Shown piece after piece: positions 30,451 to 34,356 of a stretch of 34,356 nucleotides of DNA. The notes under the pieces were generated by a model. It was given only the letters and a program-made list of their open reading frames with translations, did no database searches and was not told where the DNA came from. The DNA comes from Candidatus Delongbacteria bacterium (GTDB lineage: Bacteria > UBA4055), in NCBI GenBank assembly GCA_003252515.1, contig QKDR01000005.1, forward strand, positions 1 to 34,356, given 5' to 3'. The translations under genes were made by a program, and so were the position numbers. Numbering within the stretch: the first letter of the stretch is position 1; every line of letters starts with the position of its first letter.

Positions 30451-30567
30451 GTATTATATTGATAAAATTATATTAATTGGTGACGAAATATGCGGATATT
30501 AGGATGAATGATTAAACAGGACAATGTTAAAATGTCGTGAATAATGAGAAAAAATCTCTTAAAACAC

Positions 30568-30596
30568 TTGACAAAACAAGTAATTGTCTGTATATT
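30568..30596 (+). promoter_or_regulatory. Near-consensus promoter of the RloAB-TIR operon with overlapping inverted repeat
   Basis: TTGACA (30568-30573), exactly 17-base spacer, TATATT (30591-30596). An inverted repeat ACTTG-N6-CAAGT (30566-30581) overlaps the -35 box, and GACAA (30570-30574) is mirrored by TTGTC (30584-30588). Such overlap suggests a repressor site. Transcription would start near 30603, ruling out a start codon at 30544. Confidence 0.8.
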
Positions 30597-30636
30597 GTCT
30601 TCGGGTGGAGAAAATAATTACAATAAAGGGTTTAAA

Positions 30637-31965
30637 ATGCTGATAGGATTTGAAATTGAGAACTGGATGTCATATAAAGGTAAAACGGAATTCTCTATGA
30701 TCGCGAGCAGAGAAAGGCAGCATGGAGAGAGGGTTCCAAAGATCCCGAAGTTTCAGAGCAGGATACTTCCGATAGCTTCGATCTATGGCGGCAACGCTTC
30801 AGGAAAAACAAACTTCTTCAAAGCAATAGATTTTGTAAAAGATTTTGTTGTTGAGGGTACTAAACCGGACAGTATGATATTATGCGAACCGTTCAGACTT
30901 GATAATGAAAGCGCGGATAAACCGACAAGTTTCAAAACAGTTATGCTCATAGATGAGGTTATATATGATTACAGTTTTTCTGTAACAAGAAAAGCCGTGA
31001 TAAACGAGAGACTTGTTCAGATAACAAGCACAAATGAGAAAGTGTTATATGACAGAAAAGACGGAAACCCGAATTTTCATAAATCTTTGAAAAGGGACGG
31101 CCTTTTAAAATTCGCTTTTATGGGTACAAGGCCGAATCAGCTGTTTCTTACAAATTCAGTCTCACAGAGTGTGGATACTTTCAGAAATGTTTACGACTGG
31201 TTCAAAAACACTCTTGTACTTATAGCTCCTGATGCGCGTTTCGGAAGATATGAAAGTTTTTTTGATGACAGTGATCCTCTTTTTAAAAAAATGAATACAA
31301 TATTGTCTCAACTTGATACAGGTATTGCCAGCTTGAAATATATAAATGTTCCTTTCGATAGTATTCCGATACCTGAACAAATAAAAATAAAACTTAAAGA
31401 AGACATATCTGATAAAACTGTGGCTAAACTTCATTCCCCAGACACAAGTGAAAGATATATTGTTATGAGAGTAGACGGTGAATTGATAGCCAAAAAGCTG
31501 GTTGCTTACCATAAAAATAAAAGCGGTTCCGATGAGAAGTTTGAATTTCAGCAGGAGTCTGACGGATCATTAAGAGTAATTGATCTTTTGCCATCATTTA
31601 TCAGGCTATCGGAATTCAATTCAAATAGAGTAATCATTGTAGATGAATTAAATAGGAGTTTGCATACTCAGCTTACAAAACAGCTGATCAGATGTTATTT
31701 GGCTAACTGCGATGAAAAATACAGATCTCAATTACTTTTCACAACTCATGATCTTCTTCTGATGGATCAGCAGCTTCTCCGCAGAGATGAAATGTGGGCG
31801 GCAGACAGGGATGAAGAAGGAATATCAAGCCTCAGAGCGTTTATTGAATTCAAAGAGATCAGGTATGATAAAGATATTATGAAAAGTTATCTGCAGGGAA
31901 GACTTGGAGGAATCCCGAAGATCACACTGAAGAAGGATAAAGTTCTTAACGACAGGAAATGTTGA
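30637..31965 (+). CDS. RloA/AbiLi-like AAA (AAA15/21, OLD-like) ATPase
   Basis: Start at ATG 30637 (AAGGG upstream and downstream of the promoter); 442 aa. The N-terminus LIGFEIENWMSYKGKTEFSM is the SMC/RecF-like opening of this family. Walker A GGNASGKT at 51-58, an ABC-like signature region ESDGSLRVIDLLP (about 308-320), Walker B VIIVDELNRS (332-341, Asp336-Glu337) and the switch His371 in FTTHD. This set is the abortive-infection/RloA ATPase pattern. RloA-type proteins pair with RloB proteins in the AbiL phage-defence system. The stop overlaps the next gene's start by one base (TGATG). Compared with the two last genes of the operon its base composition looks host-like. Confidence 0.9.
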   Translation: MLIGFEIENWMSYKGKTEFSMIASRERQHGERVPKIPKFQSRILPIASIYGGNASGKTNFFKAIDFVKDFVVEGTKPDSMILCEPFRLDNESADKPTSFKTVMLIDEVIYDYSFSVTRKAVINERLVQITSTNEKVLYDRKDGNPNFHKSLKRDGLLKFAFMGTRPNQLFLTNSVSQSVDTFRNVYDWFKNTLVLIAPDARFGRYESFFDDSDPLFKKMNTILSQLDTGIASLKYINVPFDSIPIPEQIKIKLKEDISDKTVAKLHSPDTSERYIVMRVDGELIAKKLVAYHKNKSGSDEKFEFQQESDGSLRVIDLLPSFIRLSEFNSNRVIIVDELNRSLHTQLTKQLIRCYLANCDEKYRSQLLFTTHDLLLMDQQLLRRDEMWAADRDEEGISSLRAFIEFKEIRYDKDIMKSYLQGRLGGIPKITLKKDKVLNDRKC

Positions 31966-32564
31966 TGGCTTTAAACCGAAGAAAGTTCGAAAGAAAATAT
32001 GTCGCTGTAAGGAGTTATAAGAAACTGTTCATCATTTCGACGGAAGGACAGAAAACCGAGCCTGAATATTTTGAGATTTTCGACAATCGCAATGCTATAA
32101 TCAAAGTTAAATGTCTAAAGTCGGGAAAAGACAGTTCACCTTTAAGAGTATTAAAGAGAATGGAAAAATATATAAAAGAAGAAAGCCTTTTAGATACAGA
32201 TGAAGCATGGCTCGTTGTTGACAGGGACCAGTGGACTGAAAAACAGTTGTCGGAATTAAACCAGTGGGCTGAAAAGAAAGAAAATCACGGTTTCGCCCTA
32301 AGCAACCCTAAGTTCGAGTTCTGGTTGCTCCTTCACTTCGAAGATGTAAAATCCGTAAAGACATCAAAAGACTGTACTGCAAAGCTGAAAAAACATATTC
32401 CCGATTATGATAAAAGCATAAATCCTGATAAGATCACCGACAAAATGATAAATGATGCGATCACAAGAGCGAAAAGCAGAGACAAAGGTTCGTTTGAGGA
32501 TAATTTGAGGAGTTTAGGGAGTACGGTTTATAAAGTGGTTGAGAAGATAATGGAGAGGAAATAA
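31965..32564 (+). CDS. RloB/AbiLii-like TOPRIM-type protein
   Basis: Start taken at the ATG within TGATG (31965), AGGA 7 bases upstream; an ATG at 31959 is the alternative. Product 199 aa. RloB family features: FIISTEGQKTEPEYF (Glu27, the first acidic TOPRIM residue), AWLVVDRDQW (Asp86, Asp88, the DxD pair), and SNPKFEFWLLLHFE (113-126), the family hallmark. TOPRIM proteins are metal-dependent nucleases or related enzymes; RloB with RloA gives abortive-infection type phage resistance. The exact activity is not shown by sequence alone. The stop shares one base with the next ATG (TAATG). Confidence 0.92.
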   Translation: MALNRRKFERKYVAVRSYKKLFIISTEGQKTEPEYFEIFDNRNAIIKVKCLKSGKDSSPLRVLKRMEKYIKEESLLDTDEAWLVVDRDQWTEKQLSELNQWAEKKENHGFALSNPKFEFWLLLHFEDVKSVKTSKDCTAKLKKHIPDYDKSINPDKITDKMINDAITRAKSRDKGSFEDNLRSLGSTVYKVVEKIMERK

Positions 32565-33868
32565 TGAAATCAGTTCGTACCCATGATCTAGCATCTCATA
32601 GAGCTTTCTTTACAGAATATGATTTGCACGGTGATCCCAAATATTGGATAGTTGATTCAGTCAAAGAAGCTGTTAGTAAGGATATGGAAAGGAAATTAAA
32701 ATTATTATTATTAACTAAATCTAGTGTTATAGTAGCAGCATCACAGTTACTTGAATCTCCATTTGCTCATTCAATTATCATAGAAAATCCTGAACTTATT
32801 GAAAGTGGTGCTATAGTATCGTCATTGAAATTTGGGCATAATTCAACGAGAGAATTCCTAAATATAAAAAGAGATGAAGAAATAAAGAGTAAAAATAATA
32901 CATATCATTCTGCTGAAGCATTTGATATCGCAAATTTAATAGATGATAAAGGTACATCAATTAGGTGGCATTTGGCAGTTATGAGCGATTGGTTTAGAGA
33001 TAGATTAGTCAAAGACCTCTCTGATGACAGTAGTTTGATTAGAACTTTTTTAAGATCTAAAAAAATACATTTTCCGCTGGAAATAGGGAATTTATTAAAA
33101 TATGAAAAAGGACTATCACGAGGTAGAGTTGAAGACATTGTAAAGAATTATGGCAATCAAAAGCTTACAGAATTTTTGAAAGTTTATGCTGATTTTATTT
33201 ATTATTTAAGTGGTGCAAGAGCAACAGAATCTGAAGGAGTATTACCACAAGAGAATTTAGTTGATATATCAATTTCTGAATTTATGGGACATAAAATGAA
33301 TTTATCGGAAAATGATATTTTTTTTAAAGTTTTTATAGATACAGTAAAAGCAAAAACTTCTACGATTTTTCCGTCAGATTTTCTTGATATCTTATCTATA
33401 AAGGATGTTTTAGATTTAAGATCAGTTGCTGTATCAGATGAATTTGTAGCAAAATATAATATTTTACAATCAAAAACCAAAGAAGCTATTAATATAACTG
33501 ATTCAGATCGCTTAGTTCTACATCTAAGTGAGTTAGAAGAATTTGAATCAAAACTTTTTGTGAACTTTAATGAATCTTTAAATACTGAGCTAGGAAAAAA
33601 ATTGACAAGAATTCGTCAAAATTCAGCTGTAAAGACATTACATTCGGTTTCATCAATTGCTGGTTTTGGTATTGATGCATATAAAGACTTAGTAGTATCA
33701 GGATTAAAATGGATGTCTTTTGATAAGATTGCAGATAAAATTGATAAAAAAGTTGAAATCGGTTTAAAAACATGTTCGCAACTATTATATAAAATGAATC
33801 TGCTTGATAGACAATTATTTCTTGACTATGTAGATACATTGAAAAATAAATATAAGGAAAAGCTTTAA
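32564..33868 (+). CDS. Unrecognised 434-aa protein, third gene of candidate defence operon
   Basis: I do not recognise the family. It is a soluble-looking, mostly helical protein without signal peptide or membrane helix. Visible features: an N-terminal region of Lys-rich helices (MERKLKLLLLTKSSVIVAAS), a loop with SLKFGHNSTREFLNIKRDEE (about 87-106), a central segment RWHLAVMSDWFRDRLVKDLS, and a C-terminal helical part (SSIAGFGIDAYKDLVVSG). No P-loop, no HEPN R-x4-6-H motif and no HxH or PD-D/ExK nuclease signature were found. Start ATG shares a base with the RloB stop (GAGAGGA upstream), and its own stop shares a base with the TIR gene's ATG. The gene is strikingly AT-rich (33301-33360 has 20% G+C). 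I infer a sensor, adaptor or regulator for the TIR protein. Confidence 0.8.
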   Translation: MKSVRTHDLASHRAFFTEYDLHGDPKYWIVDSVKEAVSKDMERKLKLLLLTKSSVIVAASQLLESPFAHSIIIENPELIESGAIVSSLKFGHNSTREFLNIKRDEEIKSKNNTYHSAEAFDIANLIDDKGTSIRWHLAVMSDWFRDRLVKDLSDDSSLIRTFLRSKKIHFPLEIGNLLKYEKGLSRGRVEDIVKNYGNQKLTEFLKVYADFIYYLSGARATESEGVLPQENLVDISISEFMGHKMNLSENDIFFKVFIDTVKAKTSTIFPSDFLDILSIKDVLDLRSVAVSDEFVAKYNILQSKTKEAINITDSDRLVLHLSELEEFESKLFVNFNESLNTELGKKLTRIRQNSAVKTLHSVSSIAGFGIDAYKDLVVSGLKWMSFDKIADKIDKKVEIGLKTCSQLLYKMNLLDRQLFLDYVDTLKNKYKEKL

Positions 33869-34356
33869 TGAAAGTGTTTGTTAGTCATTCAATGAAAGAT
33901 CATGCTTTGATAGAAAGTATGAATTACGTTTTAAGCCAAAGTGGAATAAAGCTTCTTCTAGCAGAACATGAAATAGATATAACTCATACTATCACTGATA
34001 AAATTAAAAGTATGATCGAGGATTGTAGTTTTGGATTAATTTTGTTAACAAAGAATGGTATTAAATCGGGTTTTGTAAGGGAAGAAATTGGATATTTAGA
34101 AGCAAAAAAGAAACCAAATGTAATGATAGTAGAAAAAGGTGTTGAGAAAAAATACGGTGGTTTCAAATTTGGTCATGATTATATACAATTAGATGTCGAT
34201 AAACCTGAGAATGCAATAAAAAAAATCAATGATACTTTGATGAAATTCTGGAATGAAATGAAAGAAAAAGAAGAACAAAGAAAAGAAGATAATAAGGCTA
34301 TACTTATAGGTCTAGGTGTTCTAGCATCATTCATTGTAATTTTACTTAGTGATAAT
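33868..34356 (+). CDS. TIR-domain protein with C-terminal membrane helix (partial, cut by right edge)
   Basis: Read by hand: ATG at 33868 in TAATG, AAGGA upstream, open for 163 codons to the window end. Residues 1-115 form a TIR domain: MKVFVSHSMKDHALIESM (box 1, VFVSHS), ITDKIKSMIEDCSFGLILLT (helix and strand, box 2 area) and SGFVREEIGYLE, where Glu73 aligns with the NAD-hydrolase glutamate seen in SARM1-like and bacterial TIRs. Residues 120-142 are a charged, helical linker (KEKEEQRKEDNK), and 144-160 a membrane helix (AILIGLGVLASFIVILL). A membrane-tethered TIR enzyme suggests NAD depletion or signal production at the membrane. It may continue beyond the edge into a further domain. Confidence 0.88.
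   Translation, partial: MKVFVSHSMKDHALIESMNYVLSQSGIKLLLAEHEIDITHTITDKIKSMIEDCSFGLILLTKNGIKSGFVREEIGYLEAKKKPNVMIVEKGVEKKYGGFKFGHDYIQLDVDKPENAIKKINDTLMKFWNEMKEKEEQRKEDNKAILIGLGVLASFIVILLSDN

What the first reader, a model, noticed from the sequence alone, without database searches (positions are those of the whole stretch)
32564..33868. 434-aa protein of no recognisable family as candidate new defence component
It sits between RloB and a TIR gene with one-base overlaps on both sides, a position usually taken by sensors or effector-activating partners. I can see no nuclease, ATPase, HEPN or membrane motif. Its composition differs from the two genes before it but matches the TIR gene, so these two probably moved together as a TIR/partner pair.
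Basis: partly seen in the sequence, partly recalled or inferred. Interest (0 to 1): 0.7.

Follow-up and report, generated by a model that had tools for sequence, protein, structure and literature searches.

The report
Unnamed mobile defence-island protein family
The gene makes a member of a rare, unnamed protein family that turns up in scattered bacteria and archaea, often inside antivirus gene clusters, but its neighbour in this operon, a TIR gene, is not a regular companion of the family.

Summary
The ORF is real: 434 aa, TAATG one-base overlaps on both sides, and base composition like the TIR gene and unlike RloA/RloB. Pfam, PADLOC, PHROGs, NCBIfam and PDB sequences give nothing credible. 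After several blank searches, a composite query of likely conserved motifs found eight relatives in bacterial and archaeal MAGs, 28-51% identical (the lowest partly masked). This is a conserved, unnamed family of about 435 aa. With eight rows AlphaFold2 models residues 1-225 fairly well: four strands and helices, Rossmann-like, with a poorly modelled helical C-terminal half. No solved fold matches clearly. A PIN-nuclease reading rests on topology and invariant acids; profile and motif tests do not support it. Contexts vary: inside an Hma operon, behind HsdS, beside a Dcm/HATPase/HNH locus, between attC-like sites in an archaeal MAG, or alone. Two of nine copies are broken. Only the window has a TIR gene directly adjacent. 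Best reading: a mobile add-on defence protein, probably with its own enzymatic domain, not a dedicated TIR partner. The biochemical activity is not shown.

The parts
32564..33868 (+). 434-aa member of the unnamed family (the finding)
   Evidence: ORF; eight relatives 28-51% identical
32564..33238 (+). N-terminal alpha/beta domain, residues about 1-225
   Evidence: AlphaFold2 on alignment A3: strands 13-17, 53-58, 84-89, 131-135 with helices between; block pLDDT mostly 70-93, one block at 49
33239..33865 (+). C-terminal helical part, residues 226-434, low-confidence model
   Evidence: block pLDDT 34-75
32609..32617 (+). invariant F16-T17-E18 at the end of the first strand
   Evidence: invariant in 8 of 8 rows of A2
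32753..32758 (+). invariant E64-S65 just after the second strand
   Evidence: 8 of 8 rows
33191..33217 (+). motif D210-F-x-Y-Y-L-S-G-A218
   Evidence: 8 of 8 rows
33233..33265 (+). motif E224-G-V-L-P-Q-E-N-L-x-D234; EGVLPQEN was a search seed, so its invariance is partly by construction
   Evidence: 8 of 8 rows
30544..31965 (+). RloA-like AAA ATPase (PADLOC AbiLi, AriA-like); a start at 30637 is plausible
31959..32564 (+). RloB-like protein (PADLOC AbiLii)
33868..34356 (+). TIR protein, open at the contig end, with a hydrophobic stretch near residues 142-162
30568..30596 (+). best promoter-like match (11 of 12) before RloA; no terminator-like site found from here to the contig end
   Evidence: 14 promoter-like sites found, 17.4 expected by chance

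Best explanation
The gene belongs to an undescribed, rare, mobile family of about 435-aa soluble proteins that is carried as an add-on inside or beside other defence modules. Shown: the family exists across bacteria and archaea; it has a conserved N-terminal alpha/beta domain with invariant polar motifs; its neighbours change from genome to genome; some copies are broken. Inferred: the invariant FTE, ES, DFxYYLSGA and EGVLPQEN residues form a pocket that cleaves or binds a nucleotide or nucleic acid, and the helical C-terminal half senses infection or holds the enzyme off. It would then act as an effector in its own right, with no fixed partner. In this window it is read in one operon with AbiL-like RloA/RloB and a TIR gene and shares composition with the TIR gene, so those two may have arrived together here, but the TIR gene is not a required partner of the family.
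For: Eight relatives from 155 candidate stretches, with full-length or long matches of E 1e-51 to 1e-101. Family alignment with dozens of invariant residues. Hma operon around L020 (HmaA 1.6e-135, HmaB 8.7e-112, HmaC 1.2e-83), with the gene 48 bases after a UvrD-type helicase and 44 bases before HmaB. HsdS 10 bases upstream in L019, with N6-Mtase and IS200 transposase pieces near. Dcm, HATPase and HNH genes at L026. attC-like palindromes and repeats around the L021 copy. Gene lower in GC than its locus by over 0.04 in L020, L021, L024 and L025 (4 of 8) and low in the window. Broken copies L023 (C-terminal piece on another contig) and L026. Archaeal and bacterial copies interleave in the tree. 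PMC12839542 (passages read) reports nuclease effectors often embedded in the core loci of the DUF499/DUF1156 systems, the kind of locus L020 lies in.
Against: No biochemical or phage data exist. L024, L025 and L022 show no clear defence genes next to the family gene. The model of residues 230-270 and 305-370 is poor and no solved fold matches, so an enzymatic role is a guess from conservation. The relatives were found with a seed that favours one motif, so the sample is small and skewed.
Confidence: 0.45

Rival explanations
1. Dedicated partner of the TIR protein (sensor, activator or inhibitor), moved together with it as a two-gene system.
For: One-base overlap and shared low GC3 with TIR. 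The nearest relative L026 is a broken gene, so a lost TIR cannot be excluded in this subfamily. L021 has a DUF4062 gene upstream and a TIR-like ORF downstream.
Against: No TIR relative in the eight loci by tblastn (best E 2.7). Direct TIR adjacency in 1 of 9 loci. In L020 the gene lies inside an Hma operon instead.
Confidence: 0.25
2. A cargo or housekeeping-type gene that merely hitch-hikes in mobile regions and has no defence role.
For: L024 and L025 are beside ordinary genes; rare and patchy; two of nine copies broken.
Against: Placement inside the Hma core locus and directly behind HsdS; defence genes at 3 of 8 relatives besides the window.
Confidence: 0.2
3. A divergent PIN-like RNase effector: E18 after the first strand, E64 after the second, D210 and E230 would be the four metal-binding acids, with a helical insertion as in PIN_12 proteins.
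For: All four acids invariant in 8 of 8 rows (E230 is in the search seed). Strand order compatible; VapC chains 3zvk_C Z 3.6 (rmsd 4.4, 112 aligned) and 5ecw_A Z 3.5 (rmsd 4.2, 110 aligned) over most of the chain. Acid spacing 46/146/20 against 40/128/24 in the PIN_12 protein L027 of the same genome (counted from positions).
Against: hhalign of the family N-terminus against five PIN alignments gave probabilities under 0.4%, no better than the reversed control. Acid-anchored motif scores against PIN sequences were mean z -0.01 to 0.73. Cyclodipeptide synthases score slightly higher (Z up to 4.2, rmsd 5.4, 149 aligned), and all Z are in the range of chance.
Confidence: 0.15
4. A third subunit of the AbiL (RloA/RloB) system.
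For: One-base overlap with RloB; no terminator found between.
Against: RloB is in 9 of 13 genomes of this phylum while this family is in 1 of 13; composition differs; none of the relatives' scanned neighbours is RloB.
Confidence: 0.05

Closest known systems
PIN / PIN_12 (DUF4935) nucleases and VapC toxins
   Same: Alpha/beta domain with strands in compatible order, an invariant acid after strand 1 and after strand 2, a D in a helix motif D-F-x-Y-Y like the D-F-L-I-W and D-A-I-I-Y-Y of two PIN_12 proteins, large helical insertion in PIN_12
   Different: No Pfam PIN match, no profile-profile match, Glu where PINs have Asp, C-terminal helical half of about 200 aa
Thoeris (ThsA/ThsB) and other TIR two-gene systems
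   Same: TIR gene next door with weak ThsB-type PADLOC matches (5e-10)
   Different: No SIR2, SLOG, macro or transmembrane module in the partner; TIR not conserved with the family
Hma / BREX-related (DUF499-DUF1156-helicase) systems
   Same: One relative (L020) sits inside such a core locus, a place where auxiliary effectors are reported
   Different: Not a core gene: no Hma genes were found around the other relatives in the neighbours scanned
AbiL (RloA/RloB)
   Same: Upstream neighbours in the window
   Different: Not co-distributed with this family

Membership tests
PIN-like nuclease | Match to a PIN-clan sequence model | tested here: not met
   Pfam scans of the window protein and five relatives, no PIN at E up to 1; hhalign under 0.4%
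PIN-like nuclease | PIN topology of a 3-2-1-4-5 parallel sheet | tested here: inconclusive
   Four strands in compatible order in the model; VapC Z 3.5-3.6, cyclodipeptide synthases up to 4.2
PIN-like nuclease | Three to four conserved metal-binding acids at strand ends | tested here: inconclusive
   E18, E64, D210, E230 invariant in 8 of 8; geometry unknown, motif scores near chance
PIN-like nuclease | Metal-dependent RNase activity | not testable with these tools
   needs protein
Dedicated TIR partner | Recurrent adjacency to a TIR gene | tested here: not met
   1 of 9 loci has a TIR gene directly beside it; flanks of L023, L024 and L025 are short on one side
Thoeris | SIR2-SLOG, macro or transmembrane ThsA partner | tested here: not met
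   No such domain in the 434-aa protein
AbiL third component | Co-occurrence with RloA/RloB | tested here: not met
   RloB in 9 of 13 genomes, this family in 1 of 13
SLOG, CARF or STAND sensor | Fold or sequence match | tested here: inconclusive
   Not listed in Foldseek or VIA rows, which does not exclude them

The most novel reading that the evidence does not exclude
The family is the first seen of a class of stand-alone immune effectors with its own active site (perhaps a PIN-like metal nuclease built on E18, E64, D210 and E230), spread between bacteria and archaea as integron cassettes and by insertion into existing defence operons such as Hma, AbiL-TIR and type I RM, where it adds a second line of attack.
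Probability: 0.15. Interest if true: 0.75.

Novelty: new variant of a known kind. Interest (0 to 1): 0.5.

Why it matters
It gives an unnamed, testable protein family with defined conserved motifs and nine located members, some in well-known defence operons. If it is an effector, it would be a new module that defence systems pick up; if it is a TIR regulator in this subfamily, it would add to the short list of TIR activators. The correction also matters: adjacency and shared composition in one operon would have led to naming it a TIR partner.

Tried and rejected
Relatives by single-sequence searches: none in genome contigs and viral contigs by peptide patterns, none in 72,556 plasmid or 50,697 phage records by tblastn, none in 12 other genomes of the phylum, 385 others in a wider sample that includes those 12, 291 in another phylum and 5. 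Degenerate patterns in viral contigs: 0 and 3 hits, the 3 being chance. A decoy alignment used only to steer pattern choice gave nothing. The profile A3 gave three weak hits in 386 genomes; I read their alignments as chance; also none in 17 and 2 genomes, in viral contigs with A2, or in plasmids and phages with the L020 protein.

Folds: the single-sequence AlphaFold2 model was useless (mean pLDDT 31.7). Foldseek on the alignment-based model gave nothing under E 0.2 in PDB or 0.6 in BFVD. The weak DNA polymerase beta match to residues 326-407 (E 0.017) vanished with the profile and is taken as chance. SLOG, CARF, STAND and known Abi folds did not appear among the listed rows, which excludes none of them. 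PIN: see rivals; sequence tests negative. TIR relatives: none in plasmids, viral contigs or phages; the PDB match of the TIR protein was to a designed barrel and is chance.

Rows dropped: L025 was left out of the alignments because parts of it are masked; L026 is cut to its first 166 residues in A3; L023 lacks its C-terminus.

Full report
What was checked. The ORF, its length and both one-base overlaps are as described. An open run of this length does not arise in shuffles of the same bases (at most 139 codons in 500). GC3 is 0.156 for this gene and 0.190 for TIR, against 0.346 and 0.421 for RloA and RloB and about 0.5-0.6 for the four chromosomal genes measured upstream. The contig ends at 34356, so the TIR gene is open and nothing beyond it is known.

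No known family. Pfam, PADLOC, PHROGs and NCBIfam give nothing (best NCBIfam row E 0.13). PDB sequences give only a weak polymerase beta stretch (E 0.017) that a family profile does not reproduce. The first searches for relatives all failed.

Finding the family. A 79-aa query joined from six pieces of the window protein that looked like conserved motifs was scanned against the genome-contig collection (84,980 species by the tool's description): 155 stretches matched a pattern and 8 encode relatives. All eight carry the exact seed EGVLPQEN, so conservation of that motif is partly by construction and relatives that lack it are missed. Against the full window protein they match at E 1e-51 to 1e-101, 28-51% identity (the lowest, L025, is partly masked). 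Hosts by record title: Chlorobiaceae, Syntrophaceae, an unclassified archaeon, Myxococcales, Thermoplasmata, Ignavibacteria, Zixibacteria and Aequorivita, all MAGs. In a tree of 8 (L025 left out) the window protein groups with Aequorivita (100/99) and the two archaeal copies group with Ignavibacteria (100/100). The family is rare: none in 385 other genomes of a wide sample with either the single sequence or the profile at E 0.001.

Anatomy. Invariant in 8 of 8 rows: R13, F16-T-E18, R43-K44, K46-L47, L50, K52, L62, E64-S65, F98, W135, F144, R147-L148, D151, S157, R186, L201, D210-F211, Y213-Y-L-S-G-A218, E224-G-V-L-P-Q-E-N-L232, D234, S236, L247-S248, F253. AlphaFold2 on A3 gave mean pLDDT 66.4 and pTM 0.58: residues 1-225 mostly 70-93, with strands 13-17, 53-58, 84-89 and 131-135 between helices; the rest is helical and poor. 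Foldseek has no match under E 0.2. The structural aligner gives cyclodipeptide synthases up to Z 4.2 and VapC toxins Z 3.5-3.6, all within chance. E18, E64, D210 and E230 sit where PIN nucleases have acids (recalled layout), with spacing like that of a PIN_12 protein in the same genome (L027), but profile comparison and an acid-anchored motif test do not support homology. I keep PIN as a rival at 0.15.

Contexts. L020: inside an Hma operon (HmaA, HmaB, HmaC in PADLOC; DUF1156 methylase and DUF499 in Pfam), 48 bases after a UvrD-type helicase and 44 before HmaB. PMC12839542 (passages) describes such DUF499/DUF1156 loci and says nuclease effectors are often embedded in them. L019: 10 bases after HsdS, with an N6-Mtase fragment, Fic and an IS200 transposase nearby. 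L026: the gene has a stop at codon 171 of its frame from 2901 and is lost after about residue 254 where a convergent HATPase gene ends; Dcm and HNH genes lie beyond. L021: between two attC-like palindromes (z -1.53 and -2.64) that share an exact 13-mer (0.12 matches expected for up to two mismatches), with a 25-base repeat bracketing the DUF4062 gene and this gene; a TIR-like ORF follows. Integrons in archaea are reported (PMC9668308, title and start of abstract). No attC model was run, so 'integron cassette' is an inference. L023: truncated at 341 aa, with the C-terminal 111 residues found near the end of another contig. L022, L024 and L025: no clear defence genes. The window is the only locus with a TIR gene directly beside the gene.

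Reading. Changing neighbours, GC lower than the locus in 4 of 8 relatives by more than 0.04 and low in the window, broken copies and cross-domain spread point to a mobile accessory gene. Its places inside or next to defence modules (3 of 8 relatives, plus the window, which was picked for that reason) point to defence. Invariant polar motifs in the alpha/beta domain point to a ligand or catalytic site. A self-contained effector is my best guess; a TIR partner restricted to this subfamily is the main rival. No step of the mechanism has been shown. I did not find this family named in the four libraries; the seven paper searches were by topic and cannot show that it is not in print.

Noticed in passing
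L021:5208-7914: Array of attC-like repeats around a DUF4062 gene and the family gene, followed by a TIR-like ORF, in an archaeal MAG; looks like an integron cassette array.
   Followed up: partly
L026:2901-6408: Family gene in an Aequorivita MAG carries a stop and is cut by a convergent HATPase gene next to a Dcm-type methylase and an HNH gene.
   Followed up: partly
L023:6461-7723 and L050 (G695:C170): Family gene split in a Thermoplasmata MAG: residues 1-341 near one contig end, 325-435 near another, as if an inserted repeat separated them.
   Followed up: partly
window 33868-34356: TIR protein ends in a hydrophobic stretch (hydropathy 2.42) and is open at the contig end; may be a TIR with a membrane anchor.
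   Followed up: no
L027 (G000:C4:6115-6708): A PIN_12 protein of about 419 aa with C-terminal Cys-rich, zinc-ribbon-like repeats in the same genome.
   Followed up: no
own phylum, L003-L012: RloB genes are common in this small phylum (9 of 13 genomes).
   Followed up: no
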